A stretch of DNA of 64,000 nucleotides from Entomospira culicis (GCF_028748145.1 NZ_CP118181.1:62001-126000); one strand, 5' to 3'; counted from the stretch's first letter, positions 1,726 through 34,217 are shown. The notes: generated from the letters alone by a model not told the origin. Numbers and translations: made by a program.

Positions 1726-1740
1726 AGGTTGATAAATAAC

Positions 1741-10700: not shown

Positions 10701-13700
10701 GCATATCGAGGCGTTAGAAGCACATCTGGCAAGTCTTAAAGAGCGCATGCAAAGCATCGCCAGCGAACAAGAGCTGGAGTTATTACAGCATTTTGATAAG
10801 CACGATGCGCAGATGCGTGATTTTGGTGCCGAAGCAAAGGCTAAGGAGAGCGAGTATACGGCCTTGGTAGAAGAGCGCATGGCGTATGCACAGCAGTTGT
10901 GGCAGAATCTCTCGGAGAGTTTTGAGGCGAAAGAGCAGATCTACACGACGCGTGTTACGCAAATGATGGAGGAATTTAGCGAGCAGTCGCGCCAGTTGGA
11001 GCAACACTTTAAGCATGAACAAGAGGGCTTAGAGCTTCAGTTTACGCAACGTGTGGAGCAGATTGATGCGAGTTGGCAGGCATTTAATGCGAAGATTGGT
11101 GCGAAGCAAGATGCCTTCTCGGAAGATTACAATGGGCGCATTGCCTTGGCGATGGAGTCGTTGCGTGATTTGGAAGAGCAATTGTTGCATAAGCAGAGTG
11201 ATTTTGAGAGCGACTTTAGCGAGCGTTTGCAAGAGGCGATCCGTAATCTTGGGCAGGTGCAGGCGGAATTCGATGCGAAACAGGCTGAATTTGATGAGGA
11301 GTTAGCCTCACGTATTGCGATTGCAGGCGATGCACTCTCTCGTTTGGAAGGCGAATTTGCCCATAAGCGTGAGGAGTTAGAGGCAGCACTTATTGCGCGT
11401 GTGGCGGCGGCTGGGGAGAATCTTGATGGCATCGGCGATAGCCTAGAGCAACGTTATGTGCAGTTTGAGCAAGAGCTCAAAGAGAAGCTAGCGATTGCCT
11501 TGGGCGATGCGCAAGTGGCACAAGAGGAAATTCAAGCACAGAAGGTGGCGATGCAAGCGCATTTGCGTACGCAGGTGGAGAAGGCGGAGCAAGAGCTCAA
11601 AGAGATTACCGCCGAGCTTACCCATGAGCAGATTGATCGCTATAAGGAGCTGATGAACGAGCAGGAAGCGCAGTATCGCCTAGCCATGGAGCAGACCCAA
11701 GCGCAATTTACCCAGATGCTTGAGCAGGTGAATGCACAGAAAGAGGTGGTCAGCGAGCAGTTAGATAACTTTGAGGAGAATTTTGCGCAACGCTTTGAGA
11801 AGGCTCTACACGAAAATGAAGAGTTTAAGGGTGCATTGGAGGCGCAAAAGGCCGATCTTCTTACGCAAGCGCACTTGCAAGGCGAGCGTCTACAAGAGGT
11901 TATTGATCAACTCTCTGCCGAACTGATTGAGCGTAAGGATCGGGTCTTTAGTGGTTTTCAGGAGCGTCTCACGGTGAATGAGGCGCAGATGAGCGAGCGT
12001 ATGCGTGAGCTGGAGGCTAAGGCAGAGGCGGAGCGTGCGGTGTATCAAGCGCATCAGGCGCATTTTGAGGCTGAGTCATTACGTATTGAGGAGCAACAGG
12101 AGGCTTTCTTATTACAGATTGAAGAGCAGTTGCGTCAGCGTGAGGTCTCGATGCGTCAGGTGGTGCAAGAGAGGATGGAGGCGATGGAGGGCGAGGTGGT
12201 CGCCAAGCTCGATCAGCGCATTGTTCAGCTTGAGGAGCGCGCGCGCATTATCCAAGATACGGTATTGCGTTTGGGTGCAGAGAATGATGAGCGCGTGAAG
12301 GAGTATCGTAGCAAGTTGGAGAGCCAGTTGGTAAGTATGACCAGCGAGGCCGAAGAGTCTCTTTTGGATTTAAGAGAGAAACAGCACCACTTGGAGGAGT
12401 TGCGTAATACCTTGGGCGAGCAGTTGATGAGCATCCGCGAAAATGCTCTGCGAGAGTTGTTGCGTGGACAGGAGGAGCTTCAGCAGTTGATCCGTAGCAC
12501 GGTGAAGCAGACTGGTGATGACTTGAGTTTGGATGTGATGGGTACGATCGAGGATCGCCTCAACGATTATGAGGACTCCTTAAAAATGAAGATGCATCGC
12601 CTGGAGGGTTTCATTAGCGATGTGGATCAATTGGAGCACTCTTTACGCGTGAGTTTAAGTGAGGTAAGCGATCGCATTGGGCATCAGTTGGTGGCTTTTG
12701 AGAGCGATATTCATCATAAACATGAGCGCGAGGTGGAGCGAGCTACGCTCAACTTGGAGCGCATGACGCAGAATATTGCCCAGTTGGAGAGTAATTTACA
12801 CCAGATGGTGGGCGAGGTTAATCAGCGTATTTTAACTGATCTTACTAGCCTTGAGAGCGATTTGCGTGAGCGTAATAGTCAGGAGATGGAGCGCGCCCAA
12901 TTGAGCATGCAGGCGGTGGAGCAGGCGGTTACGGCGCTGGAAAATCGCTTAGCACAGATGCGTCAAGAGACGCTTGACCAAGTCAGTGGGCGCTTGGCGC
13001 AATTTGAACAGCTCTTTAGCGAGGATGTGGTACGTCGGGAGGAGGCGCTACGCAACAAGGTGCAAGAGTGGCAGTATACTTATGAGACTAAACTTGCTAT
13101 GCTTGAGCAAGAACAGCATCAGGCGCGCATGGAGTTGGGTGAGAGTTATCAGAGTCGTTATAAAGAACAGTTTGATAGTCTAGCCGGCAAGACACAAGAG
13201 CAGCTACGTCTCTTTAAAGAAGAGAGCGAGGGACTTATCCTTGCGACGAATCAAGAGGTTAAGCAGGTGCACGAACAGGTGCAACAGCTTCAACAGAGCA
13301 TGCAGAAGCGTCTGGAAGAGATTGGTGGTCGGGCTAAGGCAGAGTTGGATACGCGCTTGATGGAGGTACAACAAGCACTTTTAGCCGATTTGGATCATCA
13401 GCGTGAACGTTTACATAAGGATTTGGCGGAGAGCCAGAGTCAAAGTCAGCAACAGTTGCGCAACTTCCAAGGCAACATGGGCGAAGAGATGCAAGAGTTT
13501 GAGCGTCATGTGGTGGTACAAGTGGCACATGTGAAGGAGCAGACGCAAGCGCAATTGCAAGGCTTGGATGCCGAGCTTAGCAGTGAGCGTAAGGAGTTGA
13601 TTCAGATGCTCGATAGCTACAAGCATGAGTTACTCCAGTGGAAGACGATGAGCGATGAGGCGGCAAAATCCCTTGAAAAAGAGTTGCAAGATAAGTATCT

Positions 13701-15003
13701 TGAGTTGCAGAGTAAGGTCAAGGAGAATGTTGCGATGTTGCAAGAGGAGTTTGCTCAAGAGCGCGATCTGGTGATTGGGCAGGGCAAAGCCGAGCGCGAG
13801 CGTATTGTGGAGCAGTTGGATGCCTTGAGCATGCAGGCGGCGCAGTTGGCAAGTTCCTTTGAGGATCAGAGCCAAAGCGCGATGGTGAGCATGAAGGAAG
13901 AGGTGAATCAGATTCAGGAGGCGGTGATTGCCCAAGCCAAGCAGTTTAAGGACGAGGTGAGCGCCCAGATGGAGCAGACCAAATCGAGTGCAACGCTCTT
14001 GGCACAAGAGGCGATGGCGATGCGCGATGAGGTCTTGGCGACTATCCATGAGCAGACCTCTGCCTTGACGGCGAAGTTGGTAGATATTGAGGAGCGTCAG
14101 CAAGCCTTTGCCCAGAGCACTCCGCTCTTTGAGGAGATTATGCGCTTTAAGGAGTCTTTGGAAGAGTCGCTTAACGATCTCAAGATGCAGAGCGCGCAAA
14201 TGGATCTTCGTCGAGAAGAGGTGCAAGAAATTCAGCTTAATCTCAATGTGGCGTTGGAGGCGAACAGTAAACTTGATGATAAGATCGCCTTGATGCAACA
14301 GGCGCGCGCGCAGTTTGAAGAGATGAGCGCCCAGATTGGACATGTGGAGCAGACCTACGAGCGGGTGGAGCGTAAGGCGAAGAATATCGCGTTGTTACAC
14401 GAACAGCTTAATGATATTCAGCAAGATTTGGTCAATTTGAAGAGTCAGGAGCAATCACTTAGCCAGCAAGCGCAGGCGATGCAGAGCGATCTTCAGTTGA
14501 TGCAAGTGCAAGAGGCCAAGCTAGAAGAGCAGGCACAACGGGCGCAACGCATGACCGAAACCATCGATCTCTCGATGCAACAGGTAGAACAGATGCATCA
14601 GCATTTAGATGAGGTGAGTAGCCAAATGAAGCTGGTCGAAGAGCAACGCATCAAGGTGGATTATCTCTTGAAATTCTTTGAGAGCTCTGAAGAGCGGGTA
14701 CATGATATGGAGCATCGGGTGGCAAAAATCGATGTGATGCGTGATTGGATTGTCGAGGCCGAAGAGCGCTTGGATAAACTCCATCGTAACGCCAAGAGCG
14801 CGCTCAAGACGATTCATACGGTAGACGAGAGCGAGGAGGATGAGCCTGCGCTTGCAAAACCGAAAAAGAATAAGGCGGTCAATAAGAAGGAGGCGATTAT
14901 CCGATTGTATGAAGAGGGCTGGTCGGTAGAGCAGATTGCCAAGCAGTTGAAAGTCCCGATTGGTCAAGTTACCCTTGAGATCGATCGGCAAACGAATCAG
15001 TAG
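1741..15003 (+). CDS. Giant membrane-anchored coiled-coil protein (SpiroCoCo-like)
   Basis: A single uninterrupted frame of 4,420 residues (about 500 kDa). I chose ATG 1741 because AAAGG (1724-1728) lies 12 nt upstream; the in-frame TTG at 1729 abuts that site. Residues about 5-22 form one transmembrane helix, followed by a basic stretch that should stay cytoplasmic. About 4,300 residues of Glu/Gln/Leu/Ala-rich coiled coil follow, with almost no proline. Tryptophans recur with exact 29-residue spacing over long stretches, for example W1444, W1473, W1502, W1531 and W1676, W1705, W1734. The last ~40 residues, after a Lys/Pro-rich linker, look like a helix-turn-helix (AIIRLYEEGWSVEQIAKQL). Architecture and host type match the spirochaete family named SpiroCoCo, whose function is not established. 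The role is probably structural (a filament, tether or scaffold), which is inference. Confidence 0.85.
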   Translation: MDFLSIGSLIISFVAIGLAVTLKRNDKNSRSISGVQRFFDKKRQELEEYVQQTTQQVHDLFGELESHDKTGREILKRVEEDVREIVARGEALNEVKDLVLSFTNERDQVFESLENLKNDAKILDETMKKSQKIQEKVEKIEAHANRILIDLADRNDEALRSQREAFSQLIVQESGDVKEQVAKQLAMGESLKAELATVIEQKEHTLMSSLKAFAAEMHRIEEIYQGHLAQLEEQAKRMESEGLYQIKENIESQFSKLQELTNTLFQQESARFGQALEHQVEEFSAFTQKYRDMEEDLAYRFNELADQAMKMESEHHAFAQQMHSLETFMEHEFRGQASELQTLLAQRVAELNGTLQGEVAQQVATVKSQALEQVDLVQAINDELAQKLRYIESTVNEEHQQLTDRMQAMLAQIDGERVALAERIIGDHNALNVALEDMQEEYKRWLQDADALLDVKQKEIDTKIAQEEQRWQESAQELRAEYERWKEHFGHQVQQDQQELSEHFSRNHQELHKRADALRSDIEEHKSLLAEQLEQSLIDVGHQLAQLQEQKYESIEANLEARTEALESHFSQKIIQSDALAQTLNERYEAFSQQLQEVEARMQQGYEGNYNLVNEQLSHLESVVHAQFEANLLQLQELSQSQLGELTELLSTKVTDTHQLLEERKAMIDNEVAGIEQQFLSLEEFHQELKQNLIEQEQASVDKLDAFQKSIDATYQDLETFITTQVAASEQSAFAKVQMEVLELQSRWQERLSDIDLEMTRERQQLKDLSHDLQGAWQEVQSEYQGLSENYAKSLEEEKVRYQSQIDVVQEQFNQAISDNVTRVAEQIQGWHQQLVGGQEQVSHQLEELQGRAQQEIARLDAWLEERKASFMEESGELQAEQRLTMEQMQEELAASQQQWSARVSSYERELGEQQAIFEAEIADFQLKMNEQHQTSLQAVEQWFSQFDRFGTEANERAQTLLDAGLQALTSERDEWLEAYRAWKEETLSLIDAEKLEVSDVEAAFGNKIIELEQKFTFRVDQSLGELTHLEARWQERFATFSERFAEREAHFDQQELAFEQQFLTLNEEIRQDLVGKQEVWQAESLASQEALEETMRGMLDGLAQKQSDLHTEVRTIEEQWRERLAQLQQSIADEDEASMALVEKIRVQVQEQLVAQEQLLDEKRAEVAHRWQEQFNDLSVMWQERDLRFLTEINHAQERIELELAQMMVQMKERVEESLRLESLSALERVDELRQTGELLSEESAELRDRISSAKEQWLSEVDDVARQLKEQIAQGYEESQRAQSSLIASVEDLHQRIQERENEFEQLNERWRTQLHEQQEQLSTLNSEINGQLGLLEELLKDEVRAKEATLLAEQEQALRTWQEKQELWHANQHVLFLSFEEEQKRWQDRWQETLSSWQLDAEGESEQRKQELSEEHARIKAIYEAQFKTLGEQAELLEGAWRERYESYTEGLSEQLRNSESKIEEALEAWAQRMREVEGEVGHRLGDVNAIADELSHRWQSNFDQFESQMQEKIAQTQSHLSELELAWQEQLERNQVIVQERLQSMEHWSGTLEELLADKFNTLKAHLEERAHELSAESSEGMDTWQASIAELKAIFTAQVQEASDAVELTKLELQAKESEWEHLYLEQKYKAEHFSQEQEQAWQREFHAYQERVQIDLERTIATKMEIEARWQEAFQQLEEQASRRIDEASDSQTKVESRWQEAFQQLEEQASRRIDEAADRSLELQEKWGRELESMDALLQERIEDADRRSQLLLEQIDQKSQIIDGELSEQLRIALEKVRLFEESWHEQWQALQAKMELNQQEQEARLQEVAQLSELEQEELRNQWQASLDEFSHKREELERAWQSHQEQEALALAQIYEKHAQLEQEWQAQLEDQRATLQASMQEQEAEISRQFREIAEKTLQQSQSIEAQMADEKEELLIQLEAMKQLFHVQMDEFKQGSHDITSEVERYWQGEKVILQERIEEESLRLVDLVEQLQRQKGAQEAEFSAMLGEHRGEIAQQLEQERAQLVAKIDDLHRELHALHQQMVQGVEERRSELLSHLASLEEQEANISQNLLEKLELQELAFEQRLEEEESALQQKWQLLQENIAKLDEQWQADLLAMGEEANKHEGLASEMRAEIEARWREQFETMHAEIQSWMDGVDQRSSHQAQQVQELWSQQVEELRHALDKRGEEAMLYAKSVEESWRERFEALNRALDARVNHAELDIDAAIETTGSVWRDKLGDAALKMEERRQELLKASEDLFAQVHAQQEKTQEIAQAMESEHLEQQERLQQLFSEQERAFKEEAIATREQWRSQMLQVSEMFGEKIAQAKDDASQMEQTWQHELNIMNDRLEHQNRELLKKSVGLDAAQELIESRIASLESSAFEEFTQQRENLRMQVTLRLEELAQQMRNDWEAKLGSLRDNFAQQVQEMELFTADLKSNQELAEEQQQQFNQELERLTDEMRSRLSEVEELGSQALEALQHRLETMGQETQELTHLFASEVQEHEEKIAQIQTQVDAQFEQAYQQMAKRTDELSNELLSELEDKRKLIADEESRLDAQMEQLQSSVRQEVESLSQTMREELSLQKEQLEEEQLHLQEKLQRVRSDMEGTQEHLLLRVAQLEQEQAQYQQELKERWEVFAEQLGNEEREAVLLMKAHLDEAEGGLNDFNKAIEALQSELKEAHQGHKSWWSEHQGLLHTTFSEEEQALQENFAVLKSKLAQMSELYEEDLSSQVHQALQGVQSAMATMDNDRQEALAKAQALSSELEAIYRAQQEQASAWEREHLEHLQRDKVEIDQKIADELALFSLELEQRKEQITQDIQSHQQALIAEEQGFLATVEQARAKVAQSLHELSQEDEAKQAQWRELAQTLELFVVEQEELLRGLTAEHQGQWQEASERWTANLQEASEAIALEREEYHARTQTLIASLDSEAGEQQHRLTRALAEQKSAFEANIEQMHARMAQEQEKISIIFSRLEEAVQDKNMLLDAESQAHIEALEAHLASLKERMQSIASEQELELLQHFDKHDAQMRDFGAEAKAKESEYTALVEERMAYAQQLWQNLSESFEAKEQIYTTRVTQMMEEFSEQSRQLEQHFKHEQEGLELQFTQRVEQIDASWQAFNAKIGAKQDAFSEDYNGRIALAMESLRDLEEQLLHKQSDFESDFSERLQEAIRNLGQVQAEFDAKQAEFDEELASRIAIAGDALSRLEGEFAHKREELEAALIARVAAAGENLDGIGDSLEQRYVQFEQELKEKLAIALGDAQVAQEEIQAQKVAMQAHLRTQVEKAEQELKEITAELTHEQIDRYKELMNEQEAQYRLAMEQTQAQFTQMLEQVNAQKEVVSEQLDNFEENFAQRFEKALHENEEFKGALEAQKADLLTQAHLQGERLQEVIDQLSAELIERKDRVFSGFQERLTVNEAQMSERMRELEAKAEAERAVYQAHQAHFEAESLRIEEQQEAFLLQIEEQLRQREVSMRQVVQERMEAMEGEVVAKLDQRIVQLEERARIIQDTVLRLGAENDERVKEYRSKLESQLVSMTSEAEESLLDLREKQHHLEELRNTLGEQLMSIRENALRELLRGQEELQQLIRSTVKQTGDDLSLDVMGTIEDRLNDYEDSLKMKMHRLEGFISDVDQLEHSLRVSLSEVSDRIGHQLVAFESDIHHKHEREVERATLNLERMTQNIAQLESNLHQMVGEVNQRILTDLTSLESDLRERNSQEMERAQLSMQAVEQAVTALENRLAQMRQETLDQVSGRLAQFEQLFSEDVVRREEALRNKVQEWQYTYETKLAMLEQEQHQARMELGESYQSRYKEQFDSLAGKTQEQLRLFKEESEGLILATNQEVKQVHEQVQQLQQSMQKRLEEIGGRAKAELDTRLMEVQQALLADLDHQRERLHKDLAESQSQSQQQLRNFQGNMGEEMQEFERHVVVQVAHVKEQTQAQLQGLDAELSSERKELIQMLDSYKHELLQWKTMSDEAAKSLEKELQDKYLELQSKVKENVAMLQEEFAQERDLVIGQGKAERERIVEQLDALSMQAAQLASSFEDQSQSAMVSMKEEVNQIQEAVIAQAKQFKDEVSAQMEQTKSSATLLAQEAMAMRDEVLATIHEQTSALTAKLVDIEERQQAFAQSTPLFEEIMRFKESLEESLNDLKMQSAQMDLRREEVQEIQLNLNVALEANSKLDDKIALMQQARAQFEEMSAQIGHVEQTYERVERKAKNIALLHEQLNDIQQDLVNLKSQEQSLSQQAQAMQSDLQLMQVQEAKLEEQAQRAQRMTETIDLSMQQVEQMHQHLDEVSSQMKLVEEQRIKVDYLLKFFESSEERVHDMEHRVAKIDVMRDWIVEAEERLDKLHRNAKSALKTIHTVDESEEDEPALAKPKKNKAVNKKEAIIRLYEEGWSVEQIAKQLKVPIGQVTLEIDRQTNQ
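6760..6919 (+). repeat. 87-bp tandem duplication inside the giant gene
   Basis: Two consecutive 87-bp units encode the same 29-residue block, starting at W1676 and W1705. The shared core begins WQEAFQQLEEQASRRIDEA. The DNA copies are nearly identical for about 60 nt and then diverge. The unit length equals the tryptophan period of the surrounding protein. Confidence 0.9.
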
Positions 15004-23873: not shown

Positions 23874-24761
23874 ATGGTTAGAGGATTATATATTGGTGCC
23901 TCGGGCATGCAGGCAAATGAGCATCGTTTAGATGTGGTGGCAAACAACTTAGCCAATGTCGATTTGACGGGCTACAAAAAGGACGTATCAATCCTAAAGG
24001 CCTTTCCAGAGCTACTCATTCAACGGGTAAACGACAACGGACGGGTTACCTTGCCTATCGGTAGCTACGACAGCGCACCGATTGTGGGTAAGCTAGGCAT
24101 GGGTGTGGAGTATAACGAGACGTACACGCTTTTTGAGCAAGGCAGCTTTAAACAGACAGAGAATGCCTTTGATTTAGCGCTGGGGAATAATGAAGATACC
24201 TTGGCGATGGGCTTTTTTGTCATTGAGACACCTTATGGCGAGCGCTATACCCGCAATGGATCGTTTATGTTGGGGAAGGAAGGCTATCTGGAGACGAAGG
24301 ACGGCTATCGCGTGTTGGGCGAGAACGGCCCGATTCAGGTGAAGCTCCATAACTTTAAGGTAGACAAAGATGGCACGATTTTGCATAATAGCGCCATTGA
24401 TGGCGACCCACGTGCGGTAATTACGGCGCGCGAGAATGATTGGGCGCAGAGTGAGGTTGTAGATCGTTTACGGATTGTGCACTTCTTCGATACGATGGAT
24501 CAACCAGCCGAGCGCTACTTGAATAAAGTGGGTAATAGCATGTGGCAAGCTACCGAGCTTTCGGGTGAGGCGCGCGACTTGCAAGTAGGTGAGCGCCGTC
24601 CACAAGTGTTGCAGGGCTTTTTAGAGACCTCCTCGGTGAACGCGGTGCAAGAGATGGTAACGATGATTACCGTGAACCGTGCGTATGAGGCATCGCAAAA
24701 GAGCGTGCAAACTGCCGATACTGCAATTGAACAAGCAATCAATAAAGTATTGCGCGCATAA
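23874..24761 (+). CDS. flgF: Flagellar basal-body rod protein FlgF/FlhO
   Basis: A 295-residue rod protein of the periplasmic flagellum. It has the N-terminal family signature (MVRGLYIGASGMQ, then LDVVANNLANVDLTGYKKD), the central FlgE/F/G domain (GYLETKDGYRVLG) and the C-terminal coiled segment (NAVQEMVTMITVNRAYEASQ). The N-terminal MVRGLY form fits FlgF better than FlgG. It has its own promoter and terminator and no flgG beside it, which is unusual because flgF and flgG are normally adjacent. Exported through the flagellar type III system. Confidence 0.9.
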   Translation: MVRGLYIGASGMQANEHRLDVVANNLANVDLTGYKKDVSILKAFPELLIQRVNDNGRVTLPIGSYDSAPIVGKLGMGVEYNETYTLFEQGSFKQTENAFDLALGNNEDTLAMGFFVIETPYGERYTRNGSFMLGKEGYLETKDGYRVLGENGPIQVKLHNFKVDKDGTILHNSAIDGDPRAVITARENDWAQSEVVDRLRIVHFFDTMDQPAERYLNKVGNSMWQATELSGEARDLQVGERRPQVLQGFLETSSVNAVQEMVTMITVNRAYEASQKSVQTADTAIEQAINKVLRA

Positions 24762-24888: not shown

Positions 24889-24916
24889 AAAAAAGAGAGG
24901 AGCATTTGCTCCTCTC
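24889..24916 (-). terminator. Terminator of the outer-membrane barrel array
   Basis: On the minus strand GAGAGGAGCA pairs with TGCTCCTCTC around a 2-nt loop, followed by six T residues. Confidence 0.9.
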
Positions 24917-24940: not shown

Positions 24941-25678
24941 TTAAGCAAACTTAAACATGTACCCAACGGTAAATGCTGCAGTAAAGGGAGAAGCACCAGC
25001 AAATTTAATATCATAAGGATTAGCCATAGCCTTCATTGCTTGATTGCGGCTCATCTCTTTTGCGAATAGAGCAAAGACGTCGTAGGTAGTGCGGATACCC
25101 GTGATGAGGAAGTGGTTTTCGCTATCCATCAAGGGAAAGTAAAGACCAGTATCCATGACAATATTCATACTGATACGACTGGTTGCATTACTATTAAATT
25201 TTTCAGAAGAGCCATCGGAATCTTTAAACGTCATGGTAGGAGCAGTTGTAAAGGTCATACCGACACCTACAGCACCATACCAGTTGCCGTACATTAATTT
25301 TGCTAGGAGATCCACATCAATGGCCATAAAATTACTGCTTGCGCTACTCCACTGATTTTTATCCCAGTTTCCATCGGCATCAGTGCCGTAGGTTTTATTC
25401 ATGACACCACGGAAGAGAGAGACGTTCACACCGGGGGTGATAGCAAACCACTCGGTAAGACCAATATCTGCAAAGAGCCCTGCTTGCATCGCTGCGCCAA
25501 ATTTGACGTCTTGAGCATTACCAAAAGTCCCTTCGCTATTCTTTTCCATACGGGTGGTGAATTCATTCTCGAAACCCACACGAACACCGATACCAATTTC
25601 AACTGCATTGCTGTTTAAGGCAACACCTGCAAGGAGGAGTAGACCAAGAACGGTCTTTTTCATCGAGAAAATTTTCAT
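24941..25678 (-). CDS. Outer-membrane beta-barrel protein 1 of 6
   Basis: A 245-residue member of a six-gene tandem family. A signal peptide (about residues 1-25, cleavage after NSNA) is followed by VEIGIGVRVGFE and alternating amphipathic strands. The family core is GLFADIGLTEWFAITPGVNV and the conserved NWYGAVGVGM / MDTGLYFPL / ITGIRTTYDV blocks. The C-terminal strand ends GYMFKFA, like a BAM-dependent barrel signal. AAGGAAAG precedes the start. Predicted to sit in the outer membrane as a small porin-like or surface barrel; no specific function is recognisable. Confidence 0.8.
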   Translation of the reverse strand: MKIFSMKKTVLGLLLLAGVALNSNAVEIGIGVRVGFENEFTTRMEKNSEGTFGNAQDVKFGAAMQAGLFADIGLTEWFAITPGVNVSLFRGVMNKTYGTDADGNWDKNQWSSASSNFMAIDVDLLAKLMYGNWYGAVGVGMTFTTAPTMTFKDSDGSSEKFNSNATSRISMNIVMDTGLYFPLMDSENHFLITGIRTTYDVFALFAKEMSRNQAMKAMANPYDIKFAGASPFTAAFTVGYMFKFA

Positions 25679-25712
25679 TTATCTTTCCTTCTTTCGGATA
25701 TGATTTTCCTTA

Positions 25713-25741
25713 AAAATAACATATTTCTAAGAAAAAGTCAA
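25713..25741 (-). promoter_or_regulatory. Promoter of barrel gene 1
   Basis: Minus strand TTGACT (25741-25736) and TATTTT (25718-25713), 17-nt spacer. Barrel gene 1 can therefore be transcribed independently. Confidence 0.7.
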
Positions 25742-25839
25742 TGAATTTTTGTATATTTTAAATAAATAATGAAATTATTGTAATTTATTGTCATTTTAAA
25801 AGACAGAATAATGCTTATGCAGATATTAAATCTTCATCT

Positions 25840-25864
25840 AAGCACCTTATATGTTAAGGTGCTT
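25840..25864 (-). terminator. Symmetric hairpin between barrel genes
   Basis: AAGCACCTTA pairs perfectly with TAAGGTGCTT around a 5-nt loop, between barrel gene 2 and barrel gene 1. The minus-strand side lacks a U tract, so it may end transcription weakly or act as an RNA processing or stability element. Confidence 0.5.
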
Positions 25865-25916
25865 ATTTACTTTTTGCATGCCGAATCACTCATGCAATGG
25901 TGCTATTACCATATCC

Positions 25917-26666
25917 TTAGTTAATAAAACGGTAGACATAGCCTACGCTAAGCGCGGTACTAAAGAGCGTCATTCCGTTTGCTTTTAGGCTATAGGCGCG
26001 GTCGTCTTGCATGGCAGAGAGCATGGAGAAGTAGTGATAAAAGCTCGTTACGTCAACCGCCGTGCGCCAACCAATCATGATGTTGTGGTTATCGTAGCCA
26101 CCAAGGGGAATGTAGAAGCCGGTATCTAGGACAAAATTCATGCCGACATAAGCTTGCTTAAAGTCTCGTCCTAGATCAAAGTTGCCACCATCGGCGATAT
26201 CTTTAAAGATGGGGGCGGTGTTAATTGTAACTCCAGGTCCTACGCCTACGTACCATATTCCTAAAAAGAATTTAGCGAGTACTTCTAAGTCAAAAGAGCT
26301 GTGGCTTACCTTAATGGTTGCTTCTGCGCCATCTTCGGTATATTTTATATCCATGGTGGTGCGCCTAGCTACCGCGAAGTTAAAGCCCGGACTTATGGCG
26401 AAATTGTTGCACTCCCCAAAGCGAAAATCGGCAAAAAATCCTCCCGTAAAATTTAGGGTAAAGGGTAAGTGTTGATATTTAACGTTCCAGCCACCCTCGC
26501 CACTACCAAGCATGAATTGATCCCCGGCCCAGTGCACGTCGAATGAGGCCTCAACTCCCGCTCTCATACCAAGACCCACTTCAAAGGCGGTTACCTTACT
26601 CGTTATCCCTAATAGAGAGATCCCTACGAATAATGATGATAGTAAAAATTTACTTACACTCTTCAT
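25917..26666 (-). CDS. Outer-membrane beta-barrel protein 2 of 6
   Basis: A 249-residue paralogue with a signal peptide (cleavage near TSKVTA), FEVGLGMRAGVE at the mature start, the family blocks GGFFADFRFG, ISPGFNFAVARR, GIWYVGVGPGVTINTAP and LDTGFYIPLGG, and a C-terminal GYVYRFIN strand. Strong AAGGAG ribosome site. A TTGACA (minus, 26725-26720) lies upstream but I see no -10 at the usual spacing. Probably an outer-membrane barrel exposed to the environment; ligand or pore function unknown. Confidence 0.8.
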   Translation of the reverse strand: MKSVSKFLLSSLFVGISLLGITSKVTAFEVGLGMRAGVEASFDVHWAGDQFMLGSGEGGWNVKYQHLPFTLNFTGGFFADFRFGECNNFAISPGFNFAVARRTTMDIKYTEDGAEATIKVSHSSFDLEVLAKFFLGIWYVGVGPGVTINTAPIFKDIADGGNFDLGRDFKQAYVGMNFVLDTGFYIPLGGYDNHNIMIGWRTAVDVTSFYHYFSMLSAMQDDRAYSLKANGMTLFSTALSVGYVYRFIN

Positions 26667-26760
26667 TGTATACTCCTTTTTTTTATTCGTATACCAAAGA
26701 ACGTATAATTTTTTCTACTTGTCAATAAATTTTTTTAAAAAGATCTTCTTCATCTTATTT

Positions 26761-27501
26761 TTATCGGATATAAAAAACATATCCTAAGCTCAAGGCCATG
26801 CTTGCCCAACTGATAGCATAAATATTGGTGTTTGTATCATACGGATCGGTCTGTATCTTAACGCTATCAATAATACCTTTGACATCAAATGTAGTACGCC
26901 AACCCAACAAAATATGGTGTCGTTGAAAGTAGTCTATAGGAAAGTAGTAGCCCGTATCAAAAATAACATTAGCTCCCCAATGAGCTTTGGTATTGTCTAT
27001 TTCTGGGAAAATACGCGCACCCTCCTCTGTAGTATTATACGTTAGTGTTGGCTTCGTGTTAAGGCTTACCCCAGCACCAAAACCAAAGTACCACCATTTT
27101 GCATGATACTTCAATAAGATCTCTGCATCAAAGCTATGTGTTACCGCGGTGATGGTTTCATCCAACTGCGTTTGCTCATTCGTTTTGGTATCAATAAATA
27201 ACATACTATAGGTACTCTTACGATTGACACTTACGTTTAGGGCGGGGGTAATCGAGAACTTAGGAGTAAGACGAAAATCCATAAAGAGCCCTCCTGTTAC
27301 GGCTCCGTTAATTGGTTGTAGATAATCGAGACCAAGTTGCCCTTCTTGATATGGAATACGCAGGGGGAAGGTAACTGAAGTTAAGGCACCTTCAAAACCT
27401 ATACGCGCACCCAAACCAATCTCTACTGCCATCAGGGGTCGACTAAAGATAGTTAGCCCCAAGCTAGCCATAAGTATGAATAAATAATTTACTTTTTTCA
27501 T
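26761..27501 (-). CDS. Outer-membrane beta-barrel protein 3 of 6
   Basis: A 246-residue paralogue. Signal peptide ends near RPLMA, then VEIGLGARIGFE. Family blocks are GGLFMDFRLTPKFSITPAL, WWYFGFGAGVSLNTKP, FDTGYYFPI and LGWRTTFDV; the C-terminus is GYVFYIR. Its promoter leaves almost no leader, and only TAGG adjoining ATG resembles a ribosome site. Outer-membrane location is predicted from the signal peptide and alternating strands. Confidence 0.8.
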   Translation of the reverse strand: MKKVNYLFILMASLGLTIFSRPLMAVEIGLGARIGFEGALTSVTFPLRIPYQEGQLGLDYLQPINGAVTGGLFMDFRLTPKFSITPALNVSVNRKSTYSMLFIDTKTNEQTQLDETITAVTHSFDAEILLKYHAKWWYFGFGAGVSLNTKPTLTYNTTEEGARIFPEIDNTKAHWGANVIFDTGYYFPIDYFQRHHILLGWRTTFDVKGIIDSVKIQTDPYDTNTNIYAISWASMALSLGYVFYIR

Positions 27502-27510
27502 CCTAATAGT

Positions 27511-27539
27511 AGTGTAAACGATTTTTTCTATTGCGTCAA
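27511..27539 (-). promoter_or_regulatory. Promoter of barrel gene 3
   Basis: Minus strand TTGACG (27539-27534) and TACACT (27516-27511), 17-nt spacer. The predicted start is about 3 nt before the ATG. Confidence 0.65.
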
Positions 27540-27569
27540 GAGAAGCATACGTTTTTGGGGATCTCTTCC

Positions 27570-28274
27570 TTAGATAAATCGATAGACGTATCCTGCAGTG
27601 AGGCTGGTACTAACCGGTGTTGTAAGACTAAAGCTCTCGTTCCTGAATTCATTTGGGCTATTAACTGTGAGGGTGGTGCGCCAACCAAGAAAAATGTTAT
27701 GTCTTTTTCCGGCAAAAGGGAGGTAGAAGCCGGTATCAAGGACAACATTAAATCCAATAAATCCTCTTTTTTCAAGATTTTCAGGGGTGTAACTTACTTT
27801 TTTTCGCGCTGAATTAGAGGTGAGGGTTGGTGCACTATTCATGTTTAACCCAAGTCCCATCCCAAGATACCAATGCGCCACATGGATTTTTGCTAGTAGC
27901 TCTACATCTAAGGTATGTGTACCCAGACGCATGGGTCGGTTCATTTCTTTCTCATCATCATATAGATTTACTTTTGTTTGACGATTAAGGGAAAAGTTGA
28001 GGGCAGGGGAGAGAGAAAACCAATCAATTAAGCGAAGATCCGCGAAGAGACCTAGCGTGAAGTTACTACCACTGGGAATACGCGACCAAACCACTTTATA
28101 TTGATCTCCGTTTAAATAGAGAGCGTCGTCTGACCAGCGTTTATTGATGACCGACAGCTCATAACCAAGGCGTGTTCCTACACTAATATCAAAAGCTTGG
28201 GCTGGTTTAGCTAGACCCAAGTTTGCTATAATGAATAGGGGAATCAGTAATAAAATTTTGTATCGTTGAGACAT
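27570..28274 (-). CDS. Outer-membrane beta-barrel protein 4 of 6
   Basis: A 234-residue paralogue. Its signal peptide (MSQRYKILLLIPLF, ending KPAQA) and upstream region closely match barrel gene 5, so these two are the youngest duplicates in the array. Family blocks are GLFADLRLIDWFSLSPALNF, WYLGMGLGLNMNSAPT, LDTGFYLPF and LGWRTTLTV; the C-terminus is GYVYRFI. AGAGGG lies before the start. A CTATAC...GTATAG inverted repeat lies just upstream. Confidence 0.8.
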   Translation of the reverse strand: MSQRYKILLLIPLFIIANLGLAKPAQAFDISVGTRLGYELSVINKRWSDDALYLNGDQYKVVWSRIPSGSNFTLGLFADLRLIDWFSLSPALNFSLNRQTKVNLYDDEKEMNRPMRLGTHTLDVELLAKIHVAHWYLGMGLGLNMNSAPTLTSNSARKKVSYTPENLEKRGFIGFNVVLDTGFYLPFAGKRHNIFLGWRTTLTVNSPNEFRNESFSLTTPVSTSLTAGYVYRFI

Positions 28275-28304
28275 AATTTACCCTCTTTTAGAAAAAGCTA
28301 CCTA

Positions 28305-28326
28305 CTATACATAATATTTTGTATAG
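28305..28326 (-). promoter_or_regulatory. Inverted repeat upstream of barrel gene 4
   Basis: CTATAC (28305-28310) and GTATAG (28321-28326) form a perfect 6-bp inverted repeat with a 10-nt spacer. The proximal arm overlaps a TATAGT -10-like hexamer, a geometry typical of a dimeric regulator site. No regulator is known. Confidence 0.35.
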
Positions 28327-28362
28327 CAGGATTGAGCATAGGAACTCCTAGTTCGCGGTTAC

Positions 28363-29103
28363 CTAGATAAATCGATAGACGTACCCTACGGTGATGCTAG
28401 TGGCTACTGGGGAGATAGCAAAGGCACTGTTTCTTTCTTGTTCCTCGTCCCCGAAGAAAAGATTTGTGACATAAGAAATAGAGTTAAGTAGAATGGTGGT
28501 TCTCCATCCGATAAAGACATTGTGGTTATTGGAGACAATAGGAATGTAAAGACCTGTATCGAGAACAAGGCTAAATCCAGTGAAGCCTTTCGTTGGGATT
28601 AATCCTTCTGGATCGAAATTCTCCTTTCCATCTTCCGATATTGCCGTAAAAGTTGGGGCAGTGGTCATACTTAGACCCACTCCTGTGCCGAAGTACCACC
28701 AGCCAATATGAAATTTAGCAACAAGATCTAGATCGAAGGTATTGGCACTCATGCTTACCACCACATCCTCCACCAAGTAATCATAAACGGATAGATCCAT
28801 TGGCATTTTACGTGCCGTAGAAAAATTGAATGCTGGGCTAATGGAGAACCATGAGGCTAGACGAATGTCTGCGAAGATACCGGCAGTAAAGTTGTTACTG
28901 AGATTGAGGAAGCCCTGCCATTCTAAGCTTAGCCCATTGTTTCCAAACCATAAATCGTCGCCAGGCCAGTGCAAGTTAAGCGAGGCTTCATAGCCAAGGC
29001 GCGCGCCCACCCCGATATCGAAGGCATGAGCTGACTTTACTAATCCTACATTGGTTGCGATGAATAGCGGAATCATTAATAAAATTTTGTGTAGTTGAGA
29101 CAT
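28363..29103 (-). CDS. Outer-membrane beta-barrel protein 5 of 6
   Basis: A 246-residue paralogue with a signal peptide (MSQLHKILLMIPLF, ending KSAHA), mature start FDIGVGARLGYE, family blocks GIFADIRLASWFSISPAFNF, WWYFGTGVGLSMTTAPT, LDTGLYIPI and IGWRTTILL, and C-terminal GYVYRFI. AAGGGAG ribosome site. It has its own consensus-spaced promoter. Predicted outer-membrane barrel of unknown function. Confidence 0.8.
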   Translation of the reverse strand: MSQLHKILLMIPLFIATNVGLVKSAHAFDIGVGARLGYEASLNLHWPGDDLWFGNNGLSLEWQGFLNLSNNFTAGIFADIRLASWFSISPAFNFSTARKMPMDLSVYDYLVEDVVVSMSANTFDLDLVAKFHIGWWYFGTGVGLSMTTAPTFTAISEDGKENFDPEGLIPTKGFTGFSLVLDTGLYIPIVSNNHNVFIGWRTTILLNSISYVTNLFFGDEEQERNSAFAISPVATSITVGYVYRFI

Positions 29104-29133
29104 GATTGTACTCCCTTTTTAAATAATACATAC

Positions 29134-29162
29134 AATATATATTATTTGTAAAACGAAGTCAA
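29134..29162 (-). promoter_or_regulatory. Promoter of barrel gene 5
   Basis: Minus strand TTGACT (29162-29157) and TATATT (29139-29134), 17-nt spacer. Confidence 0.75.
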
Positions 29163-29223
29163 TATGTTATTTGGCTAAAAAAGGAAGAAAAGGAAATTTT
29201 ACGATCCTTTTCTTCCAAAGAAA

Positions 29224-29955
29224 CTAAAATTGAACGAAATAACCAAGCATCATAGAGATCGACAGTGGACTAAAGACATGAGTTTGTTGCCCCAAAATAT
29301 CAATGATATCGCTGGTAGAGGGATTTTCAGGAGCCTCTTTTATGACATTATAGATAGTCTTTATGCCCTGCACATCGAAGGTGGTACGCATGCTTAATAG
29401 CAGGTGATGGTGCTCCGATTGTGCAATTGGAATATAAAGCCCACTATCTAATACCACATTAACACCCATTTTTCGTTGCATTTTAAAGAAATCAGTCTCC
29501 AGCGTTTCACTCTCTACATTAAAGGCTACTGGTGAGTAAAAGGCAAGTCCTGCACCAATGCCCAGATACCACCATTTAGCGTGAAATTTTGCTAATAAAT
29601 CAACGTCTAAGGTATTGTAGCGCAGATGAAAATTACTGATGTCATTGGCATTAGTGTTGTTCTCCATCTGAAGGTTCGCGCGTCGCTGTAGCGCAAACTG
29701 TGCCGATGGCGAGAGCGAAAACCATGAACTAAAACGAAAATCCGCTAAGAGTCCCATAACTAGGTTCACACTAAAGAGTTGCCCGTCTTTATGGCTGTAA
29801 AGTTTAGAAATTTGCTCCATCATTGGCTGATCCCCCGGATAGGCACTATTTAAGGAGAATTCCGCCCCCACGCGCGCACCCAGTCCAATGGTCATTGCCT
29901 GCATTTGGCTTACCTGTACGAAGATCAACGTACATAATAAGAACATTTTTTTCAT
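29224..29955 (-). CDS. Outer-membrane beta-barrel protein 6 of 6
   Basis: A 243-residue paralogue, the most diverged of the six and the first in transcription order. Signal peptide MKKMFLLCTLIFVQ ending QMQA, then MTIGLGARVGAE. Family blocks are LLADFRFSSWFSLSPSAQFA, WWYLGIGAGLAFYSP, LDSGLYIPI and LLSMRTTFDV; C-terminus GYFVQF. AAGGGGGA lies before the start. TTGACG is present upstream but the -10 is unclear. Surface exposure and function are inferred only. Confidence 0.78.
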   Translation of the reverse strand: MKKMFLLCTLIFVQVSQMQAMTIGLGARVGAEFSLNSAYPGDQPMMEQISKLYSHKDGQLFSVNLVMGLLADFRFSSWFSLSPSAQFALQRRANLQMENNTNANDISNFHLRYNTLDVDLLAKFHAKWWYLGIGAGLAFYSPVAFNVESETLETDFFKMQRKMGVNVVLDSGLYIPIAQSEHHHLLLSMRTTFDVQGIKTIYNVIKEAPENPSTSDIIDILGQQTHVFSPLSISMMLGYFVQF

Positions 29956-30171
29956 CTATATATCCCCCTTTAAGATCATCAACACTGCTAGACAAAAGAT
30001 ATATCTTTGCGTCAAGTATATAATGCAAACTAACCCACATAATCACGTGTATGTGATAAGGTTAGCTTAGCCCAAAGCACGAGATAGTGTCAAGCAAAAA
30101 GAGCCGTTTTAGCGATTATTCGTAGAGGAGAAAATGCTAGATAATGAAAAAAAATCTCTCATCCAGATAAT

Positions 30172-30228: not shown

Positions 30229-30699
30229 TTACTCAGTAACCGTTACGTTAAACGTACCCTCGTAGGTAGTATCTTTGTAAGTAACAACATAGCTAACGGT
30301 TGTAGTACCCGCTTTCTGCCCACTAATAGCACCTACAGCGCTAGTAGGACCTACGCCACCACCAGACATAAAGTTAATAATAGATGGATCTTCTACAGTA
30401 AACTCAACTGTAGAATTTTGCATTATCTCTGCAAATTTCAAATCTTGAGCAAGCTTTGGATCTTGCGCTACTTCCATCATGTCGCGACCATTGATAAGTG
30501 GCGTAACCGGAAGAGATCCCATTGTACCAATAGTAACATCTGCGTAGGAGTAGACATAGGCTAGCTTAGGTGCGGCTGGCTTAGATGCGCTGGTGGAAGA
30601 CTGGTTGCTATTATCAGCACCAGCATTGTCTTTGTTACCGCCACAGCTAACTAAGCTAAGTGCTGCGATGGAGATTAGAGCAAAAAATAATTTTTTCAT
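30229..30699 (-). CDS. Small lipoprotein with Ig-like domain
   Basis: A 156-residue lipoprotein starting at ATG 30699, chosen because GAGGG lies 4-5 nt upstream. The signal peptide MKKLFFALISIAALSLVSC has a lipobox with the cysteine at about residue 19. A low-complexity Asn/Ser/Ala linker follows, then a single BIG2-like immunoglobulin fold (GAISGQKAGTTTVSYVVTY ... GTFNVTVTE). It has its own promoter and terminator, so it is a stand-alone, probably abundant, surface or periplasmic lipoprotein. Binding partner unknown. Confidence 0.8.
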   Translation of the reverse strand: MKKLFFALISIAALSLVSCGGNKDNAGADNSNQSSTSASKPAAPKLAYVYSYADVTIGTMGSLPVTPLINGRDMMEVAQDPKLAQDLKFAEIMQNSTVEFTVEDPSIINFMSGGGVGPTSAVGAISGQKAGTTTVSYVVTYKDTTYEGTFNVTVTE

Positions 30700-30737
30700 G
30701 AAACCCTCATTCAAAATTGTAAAATATTATGCTTAAT

Positions 30738-30766
30738 ATCATACTATAAGGAAGAAATTATGTCAA
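30738..30766 (-). promoter_or_regulatory. Promoter of the Ig-like lipoprotein gene
   Basis: Minus strand TTGACA (30766-30761) and TATGAT (30743-30738), 17-nt spacer. Confidence 0.85.
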
Positions 30767-30777
30767 TGACTTTTGCA

Positions 30778-30823
30778 TAAAAAAAGAGATGATTCTCTCT
30801 TCTGTAAAATAAAAGAGAGAATC
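30778..30823 (-). terminator. Terminator after rpsG
   Basis: GATTCTCTCTT pairs with AAGAGAGAATC, followed on the minus strand by a T-rich tract. Confidence 0.85.
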
Positions 30824-30835
30824 AAAATTATTAGG

Positions 30836-31315
<480 letters not shown>

Positions 31316-31361
31316 TCAGCATAACTCCTTTAAATGGTGAGATAGGTAGGTTGACGCGTTG

Positions 31362-31736
31362 TTAGGTTTTTGGCTTCTTCGCGCCGTACTTACTGCGACC
31401 TTGTCGGCGACCATCAACACCAAGGGAGTCTTTGGCTCCACGTACAATGTGATAACGCACACCAGGAAGGTCTTTTACTAATCCACCACGAATAAGCACG
31501 ACATTGTGCTCTTGAAGGTTGTGGCCAATACCGGGGATATACGCCCAAACTTCCATCTTGTTAGATAGACGCACACGCGCAACCTTACGTTGAGCGGAGT
31601 TTGGTTTACGTGGGGTTTGCACGATAACACGCACACATACGCCACGTTTTTGGGGACAATTTTGCAAAGCAGGAGACTTTGTTTTTGTGGTTTTGCTCTT
31701 TCGTCCTTGACGAACGAGCTGATTAATTGTAGGCAT
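31362..31736 (-). CDS. rpsL: 30S ribosomal protein S12 with Arg43
   Basis: A 124-residue decoding-centre protein. [34 protein letters not shown] and [15 protein letters not shown] mark it as S12. The decoding loop is [11 protein letters not shown]: counting gives Arg at residue 43, where most bacteria have Lys. The codon is CGT, read from positions around 31608. Lys43-to-Arg is a classic streptomycin-resistance substitution, so this organism is probably naturally streptomycin resistant. AGGAGAGG precedes the start. It is the first gene of the rpsL-rpsG unit. Confidence 0.98.
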
Positions 31737-33452: not shown

Positions 33453-34217
33453 GTGAGTTTAAAAGTTGGGCTCATTGCAACGGGTGAGCTTTATGAGGAG
33501 AGTTTGCGTCAGCGGGTGGTGGGCATTAGCCAGTCGGCGCAGTTATTGATGCAACTTTTCGATTACCTCGAGCCATTGATCGTGGTGGGTATGACTCCAT
33601 CGTATTTTAAAGCACAGGCGCAAGCGTATGCATTACAATTAGGTGTAACGTTAGCCCCAAGTCAGATCTCCTTTTGTCGTTTCGGACAGGTGCACCCTGA
33701 TCATCGTATATTTCAGGAAGAACCGTTGCAAGCTGGCGAAGCCTTTACTTTGGATATCTGGATTCTCTATCAGGGATATCATGCTGACTTGGCTAGAATT
33801 TATCACCTTCCGCCGTATCGGCGTGAAATCCTTCTGCTCAAGAAGGGCGCACTCGCGGTGCAAGAAGCTGCCGCCAAAGCCGCCAAAGCAGGGGAACGTC
33901 TCTTGAATATTGTGCAAGCCGCGCAGTTGGCCGCCATGCAAGCGGGCGTCTCGATTGTGGAGGGCGCTTGTGGGCATGGGGTGGGGTACGCGTTGCACGA
34001 GGAGCCGACAATTGCCTTTTGTTACAATGCTGGATCGCCCTTTTCTCGCTTAAAAGCCGGCAGCATTATTACCATCGAACCGCTTATTGCGCTCAAGCCC
34101 ACCACCCTCACCATTCATAACGATGGCGTGGTAACCCTGCCTGCAGAGATTCCTTTTTTCTATGCCGAGGCGATGGTTTATGTGGGCGAGCATCAGAGTG
34201 TAGTGATTGGACAATAA
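33453..34217 (+). CDS. Methionine aminopeptidase-like protein (M24 family)
   Basis: A 254-residue pita-bread metallopeptidase. All five expected metal ligands can be placed: Asp101 and Asp112 (LDIWILYQGYHAD), His175 (GHGVGYALHEEP), Glu209 (ITIEPLI) and Glu239 (YAEAMVYV). The substrate-side His found in VCHGIP of standard MetAP is not in a recognisable motif; the region reads FCRFGQVHPDHRIFQ. It is therefore probably a divergent or second MetAP, or another M24 peptidase. GTG 33453 is chosen because GGGGGAG is upstream. It converges on murP across a shared hairpin. Confidence 0.75.
   Translation: MSLKVGLIATGELYEESLRQRVVGISQSAQLLMQLFDYLEPLIVVGMTPSYFKAQAQAYALQLGVTLAPSQISFCRFGQVHPDHRIFQEEPLQAGEAFTLDIWILYQGYHADLARIYHLPPYRREILLLKKGALAVQEAAAKAAKAGERLLNIVQAAQLAAMQAGVSIVEGACGHGVGYALHEEPTIAFCYNAGSPFSRLKAGSIITIEPLIALKPTTLTIHNDGVVTLPAEIPFFYAEAMVYVGEHQSVVIGQ

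What the first reader, a model, noticed from the sequence alone, without database searches (positions are those of the whole stretch)
24941..29955. Six tandem outer-membrane barrel paralogues
Six genes of 234-249 codons share the GLFADxRLxxWFSxSPA, WWYxGxGxGL, DTGxYxPL and GWRTTxDV blocks and a GYVYRF-type C-terminal strand, yet differ strongly in the loops between. At least three have their own consensus-spaced promoters. Genes 4 and 5 share nearly the same signal peptide and upstream DNA, so the array is still expanding. The pattern fits a lineage-specific surface family under diversifying pressure, possibly host- or niche-related.
Basis: partly seen in the sequence, partly recalled or inferred. 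Interest (0 to 1): 0.62.

Follow-up and report, generated by a model that had tools for sequence, protein, structure and literature searches.

The report
Tandem outer-membrane barrel genes in Entomospira
A mosquito-gut spirochaete carries six neighbouring genes for small barrel proteins predicted to sit in its outer membrane, part of a genome-wide family of about 21 that largely escapes existing family models; they look old and individually transcribed rather than freshly multiplying, and their function is untested.

Summary
In detail: six minus-strand paralogues (234-249 aa, 32-50% identical to a reference member) with signal peptides, the named blocks and a GYxYxF-type end. AlphaFold2 gives confident 8-stranded barrels for two of them (pLDDT 83), nearest by fold to OmpA, Ail, OmpX and OmpW. 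Strands average 31-54% identity; the exposed loops 9-18%.

The finding is larger than reported. The genome is Entomospira culicis BR151 (replicon sizes match exactly), a mosquito-midgut spirochaete. It holds about 21 relatives: this array, one dispersed close copy, pairs and singles, and a second 4-gene array on the 98.6-kb plasmid. In 247 other Spirochaetia genomes the profile found at most 8, in one same-family genome, and those form a separate clade. The conserved flagellar-gene neighbourhood there has no array.

Two interpretations fail or are untestable. 'Still expanding' is contradicted: synonymous sites are saturated even for genes 4/5. Diversifying selection cannot be tested: dS is saturated and no second chromosome is held. 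Promoter claims hold: 5 of 6 spacers carry TTGAC (20,000 resamplings never reached 5), three with 17-bp spacing.

Best reading: a lineage-specific, separately promoted set of polar-lumen barrels displaying different loops. New member of a known kind.

The parts
24941..25678 (-). gene 1, 8-stranded barrel paralogue, 245 aa
   Evidence: ORF; PF13568 OMP_b-brl_2 28.8 bits over the 27-bit cut-off; AlphaFold2 pLDDT 82.6, eight long strands
25917..26666 (-). gene 2, 8-stranded barrel paralogue, 249 aa
   Evidence: ORF; aligned in A1
26761..27501 (-). gene 3, 8-stranded barrel paralogue, 246 aa
   Evidence: ORF; PF13568 sub-threshold 19.8 bits
27570..28274 (-). gene 4, 8-stranded barrel paralogue, 234 aa, shortest loop 4
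   Evidence: ORF; closest to gene 5, 98/96 support
28363..29103 (-). gene 5, 8-stranded barrel paralogue, 246 aa (structure modelled)
   Evidence: ORF; AlphaFold2 pLDDT 83.3, pTM 0.77, strands 29-44, 66-81, 86-106, 114-133, 136-147, 174-188, 194-205, 230-245
29224..29955 (-). gene 6, 8-stranded barrel paralogue, 243 aa, longest loop 4; pairs weakly with the dispersed copy at G000:C1:1232754
   Evidence: ORF; tree 89/66
25713..25741 (-). promoter-like site of gene 1, TTGACT-17-TATTTT with TG before the second box
26720..26725 (-). TTGACA element 59 bp before gene 2, without a good -10 at normal spacing
27511..27539 (-). promoter-like site of gene 3, TTGACG-17-TACACT
28301..28330 (-). palindrome CTATACAAAATATTATGTATAG before gene 4 (operator or hairpin; p about 0.04, uncorrected)
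29134..29162 (-). promoter-like site of gene 5, TTGACT-17-TATATT
30010..30015 (-). TTGACG element 60 bp before gene 6
24895..24916 (-). intrinsic terminator at the end of the array (9 pairs, 6 GC, then TTTTTT)

Best explanation
The six genes are a tandem part of a lineage-expanded family of about 21 single-domain, 8-stranded outer-membrane barrels in Entomospira culicis. Each protein is exported by its signal peptide, inserted through its C-terminal GYxYxF-type beta-signal, and forms a conserved barrel whose inside is lined by invariant charged residues, as in OmpA, OmpX and Ail. The barrel carries four variable exposed loops. Because most genes have their own promoter element, I infer that members are expressed separately, giving the cell a choice of surface loops for binding surfaces or molecules of the mosquito gut. 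Shown: gene set, family size, predicted fold, loop/strand contrast, promoter-like elements. Inferred: outer-membrane location, separate expression, binding function.
For: Eight-stranded models with pLDDT 82-83; top fold matches include OmpA, Ail, OmpW, OmpX, NspA. Strand hydropathy alternates in all eight strands; 7 of 8 invariant charged residues (R35, E39, D79, D124, K130, D182, R201) fall on the polar, lumen side. Strand identity 0.31-0.54 against 0.09-0.18 in the four loops; periplasmic turns are 2-6 residues. About 21 loci in the genome, with a second 4-gene array on the 98,591-bp plasmid. TTGAC element in 5 of 6 spacers. The clearest terminator is at the array's end.
Against: No sequence match to any solved structure, and only one of six passes a Pfam cut-off. 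Fold matches to 8-stranded proteins have TM-scores of about 0.3-0.66, so they show barrel type, not relationship. No expression, localisation or binding data. The polar lumen is inferred from strand parity, not measured; a narrow hydrophilic channel (CarO-like) is not excluded. Read-through from one gene to the next is possible, as spacers are 68-238 bp and lack clear terminators.
Confidence: 0.55

Rival explanations
1. The family members are small-molecule channels (OmpW, OprG or CarO type), and the expansion gives different substrate specificities, as proposed for the paralogous outer-membrane families of Treponema pallidum (PMC8407342).
For: OmpW and OprG are among the fold matches; T. pallidum's four 8-stranded barrels are read this way in PMC8407342.
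Against: Conserved charged residues fall on the lumen side, unlike the hydrophobic channel of OmpW. Variation sits mostly in the loops. No transporter genes are tied to the array.
Confidence: 0.3
2. The array is a store for antigenic variation, with recombination or gene conversion between copies changing an expressed member.
For: Tandem copies on one strand with conserved blocks and variable loops; 5' similarity between genes 4 and 5.
Against: Copies are too diverged (dS saturated, no long identical tracts between copies) for frequent conversion. All six are intact ORFs with starts and signal peptides, not silent cassettes. The plasmid array region is identical over 12 kb in isolates BR149 and BR151, though these are near-clonal.
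Confidence: 0.07
3. Ancient duplicates kept without a distinct role for each, diverging by drift under structural constraint only.
Against: All six ORFs and the dispersed members read are intact in a small 1.77-Mb genome, with signal peptides kept, and 5 of 6 array spacers keep a promoter element; pN is well below pS for every pair.
Confidence: 0.08

Closest known systems
OmpA transmembrane domain / OmpX / Ail (8-stranded, polar lumen, long loops)
   Same: Strand number, charged lumen-side residues, long variable exposed loops and short periplasmic turns; among the best fold matches.
   Different: No detectable sequence relationship to any solved chain; the proteins are longer, mostly in the loops; no periplasmic OmpA domain.
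Pfam PF13568 OMP_b-brl_2 / PF13505 OMP_b-brl
   Same: Gene 1 passes the PF13568 cut-off; genes 3 and 6 match one of the two models below the cut-off.
   Different: Five of six members do not reach a cut-off, so the models do not capture the family.
NCBIfam NF049866, TDE1717 family outer membrane beta-barrel (spirochaetes)
   Same: Weak matches to gene 6 and to a protein of the same-family genome G001; best 2.4e-6 among 17 E. culicis members.
   Different: 18 bits for gene 6 against a cut-off of 135 bits: distant relatives at most.
Treponema pallidum 8-stranded barrels TP0126, TP0479, TP0698, TP0733
   Same: Single-domain 8-stranded barrels in a spirochaete, loops highly variable (PMC8407342).
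   Different: Four members there, about 21 here, including a six-gene and a four-gene tandem array. No direct sequence comparison was made.
Ehrlichia p28-Omp locus
   Same: Tandem array of paralogous outer-membrane proteins in an arthropod-associated bacterium; 22 genes, with member expression depending on tick or mammalian cells (PMC2694197).
   Different: Different phylum; analogy only, and no expression data here.

Membership tests
8-stranded outer-membrane beta-barrel proteins (structural class) | eight amphipathic antiparallel strands closing a barrel | tested here: met
   AlphaFold2 models of genes 1 and 5 and strand parity; predicted, not solved
8-stranded outer-membrane beta-barrel proteins (structural class) | N-terminal signal peptide and C-terminal aromatic beta-signal | tested here: met
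   hydrophobic leader ending near A-x-A in the six; GYVYRF, GYMFKF, GYVFYI, GYFVQF ends; judged by eye, no signal-peptide program was available
8-stranded outer-membrane beta-barrel proteins (structural class) | location in the outer membrane | not testable with these tools
   needs fractionation or surface proteolysis
PF13568 OMP_b-brl_2 | score over the curated cut-off | tested here: inconclusive
   one of six over 27 bits (28.8), one at 19.8, the rest none
NF049866 TDE1717 family | score over 135 bits | tested here: not met
   18 bits for gene 6, none for the other array members
OmpW family | sequence match to OmpW models, hydrophobic channel | tested here: not met
   no OmpW model hit; lumen-side residues polar or charged
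OmpA | C-terminal peptidoglycan-binding domain | tested here: not met
   proteins end at strand 8; no such Pfam hit
Tandem differentially expressed surface arrays (p28-Omp type) | member-specific expression by host condition | not tested
   only promoter-like elements seen

The most novel reading that the evidence does not exclude
Entomospira has evolved, independently of Ehrlichia, a set of about 21 separately switched 8-stranded barrels, on chromosome and plasmid, that changes the cell surface between mosquito stages, tissues or host species.
Probability: 0.2. Interest if true: 0.55.

Novelty: new member of a known kind. Interest (0 to 1): 0.36.

Why it matters
Little is known about the surface of arthropod-gut spirochaetes outside Borrelia. 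A large barrel family, in a bacterium that can be cultured and has three named species with public genomes, would allow surface repertoire, host species and gene turnover to be compared directly. It also points to a family that current Pfam and NCBIfam models mostly miss, with its plasmid members annotated only as hypothetical proteins.

Tried and rejected
Genome-collection search with gene 5 found no relative by tblastn, and the 7-row alignment had no stretch conserved enough to scan with. Plasmid collection search with gene 5 found nothing; with the plasmid-array protein it found only the E. culicis BR149 plasmid. Plasmids of the two other Entomospira species are not held under the two accessions tried. 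Sequence search of the PDB found nothing. Recent duplication of genes 4/5 was considered and rejected on saturated dS. Gene conversion of the 4/5 5' ends: protein-level similarity is higher there (dN 0.18 against 0.48 in the rest), but synonymous sites are still diverged (pS 0.66), so it is not recent. Array of six as a strict clade: the tree puts the dispersed copy at C1:1232754 inside, but the AU test does not reject a six-gene clade (p 0.27). Phase variation by simple repeats: only one 8-base homopolymer, before gene 2, which is weak. A shared operator was looked for; palindromes before genes 4, 5 and 6 have p of 0.04-0.07 before correction, so none is claimed.

Full report
What is there. 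Six ORFs of 234-249 codons lie head to tail on the minus strand at 24941-29955, between a flgG-like gene (23874-24761, plus strand) and a small lipoprotein gene followed by rpsG and rpsL (30229-31736, minus strand). They are 32-50% identical to gene 5, and the named sequence blocks are present with small exceptions. The finding did not state the strand; it is minus.

Whose genome. The window lies on a 1,639,587-bp contig of a 1,769,585-bp assembly with four contigs, one of 98,591 bp. The published plasmids of Entomospira culicis BR151 are 98,591, 28,402 and 3,005 bp (PMC11636382), and 1,639,587 + 98,591 + 28,402 + 3,005 = 1,769,585. The BR149 isolate has 3,028 bp in place of 3,005. The 12 kb of contig 2 compared is identical to the BR149 plasmid record NZ_CP118186. 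The organism is therefore E. culicis BR151, isolated from larval mosquito midgut.

Fold. AlphaFold2 with an alignment of 17 paralogues from the same genome gave gene 5 a mean pLDDT of 83.3 and pTM of 0.77 with eight long strands after a signal helix. Gene 1, the most diverged, gave 82.6 and 0.75 with eight long strands. Foldseek ranked OmpA, Ail, NspA, OmpX, OmpW and OprG among its best matches. TM-scores are moderate (about 0.3-0.66 for these), so this identifies the barrel class and not a relationship. In every strand, hydropathy alternates between neighbouring residues; seven of eight invariant charged residues fall on the more polar side, taken as the lumen. Turns on one side are 2-6 residues long and the four loops on the other 7-33, the usual periplasmic/exterior asymmetry. 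Strands average 31-54% identity, loops 9-18%.

Family size and distribution. The six-gene profile finds seven further loci in the genome at E < 1e-17, and three weaker ones. A wider profile gives 21, and widening again still gives 21. Nineteen of these are rows of the last profile, so their scores there are circular, but each was first found by a narrower profile. Outside the six-gene array they include a single close relative at C1:1232754, pairs at 940 kb and 965 kb, and a four-gene array on the plasmid at C2:3920-6712, annotated as four hypothetical proteins. In a draw of 248 Spirochaetia genomes, 14 (the window's own included) had any match, the highest other count being 8 in one same-family genome, G001. 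The profile was trained on one genome, so distant barrels elsewhere are undercounted.

History. In a 29-row tree, the eight G001 members separate from all 21 E. culicis members (99/97), so the two genera probably expanded separately. The six array genes plus the copy at C1:1232754 group together (92/93, not starred); a clade of the six alone is not rejected (p 0.27). Genes 4 and 5 are the closest pair (98/96), yet about 1.2 changes per column apart. Synonymous differences are saturated for every pair (pS 0.65-0.86). The array is old; the claim that it is still expanding is not supported. In G001 the flgG-like gene keeps its left neighbours (SPOR-domain protein, CoaE) but no barrel array lies beside it, so the array is not a fixed feature of the family. 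The right-hand side could not be compared, because the G001 contig ends just after rpsG.

Expression signals. Three genes have consensus-spaced promoter-like sites, although the number of such sites in the whole region (19) is not above shuffles (15.6, sd 4.1). The stronger argument is positional: TTGAC occurs 38-63 bp before the start in five of six spacers, which 20,000 resampled spacer sets did not reach. A strong terminator closes the array at 24895-24916. Separate expression is inferred, not shown.

Mechanism. The most likely reading is a set of structural barrels with closed, polar interiors that display different loops, expressed separately. Substrate channels are the main rival. Diversifying selection cannot be assessed: dS is saturated between paralogues and no second chromosome was available here. 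Published work says 97% of genes shared by all four Entomospira genomes are 50-70% identical (PMC7554043), so even between species synonymous sites may be saturated; isolates within one species would be better.

Novelty. The structural kind is well known, spirochaetes including T. pallidum have members (four in PMC8407342), and tandem arrays of outer-membrane proteins are known in Ehrlichia (PMC2694197). The two Entomospira genome papers found (PMC7554043, PMC11636382) do not describe this family in the text read. New here are the family itself, missed by most models, its size in a 1.77-Mb genome, and its plasmid array. I file it as a new member of a known kind.

Noticed in passing
G000:C2:3920-6712 (L029:3920-6790): Second tandem array of four related barrels on the 98.6-kb plasmid, next to cutC and a Ca2+ P-type ATPase; annotated as hypothetical; identical in BR149 and BR151.
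   Followed up: yes
window 1729-15003: A single 4424-aa coiled-coil ORF with SpiroCoCo N- and C-terminal domains (NF047514, NF047515), very long for a 1.77-Mb genome.
   Followed up: partly
L023:7690-11262 and L028:2469-5298: Runs of three to four tandem lipoprotein-like genes lie beside two dispersed barrel paralogues; those in L028 share NDNGG repeats and near-identical signal peptides, so they look like more recent duplicates than the barrels.
   Followed up: no
L027:1-4670 (G000:C1:588000-592670): Translated repeats such as SCPRVEGN and PSRGGQ suggest a long CRISPR-type repeat array beside another barrel paralogue.
   Followed up: no
L098:4835-6767 (G000:C1:289834-291766): Three tandem short proteins of 164-198 aa with signal peptides, glycine-rich, possibly another small barrel family; one region matched PF13568 weakly.
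   Followed up: no
window 28301-28330, 29123-29162, 29996-30012: AT-rich palindromes overlap the probable -10 regions of genes 4, 5 and 6 (p 0.04-0.07, uncorrected).
   Followed up: partly
window 33453-34217: Methionyl-aminopeptidase-like ORF (TIGR00500 84 bits, cut-off 171), a diverged metallopeptidase.
   Followed up: no
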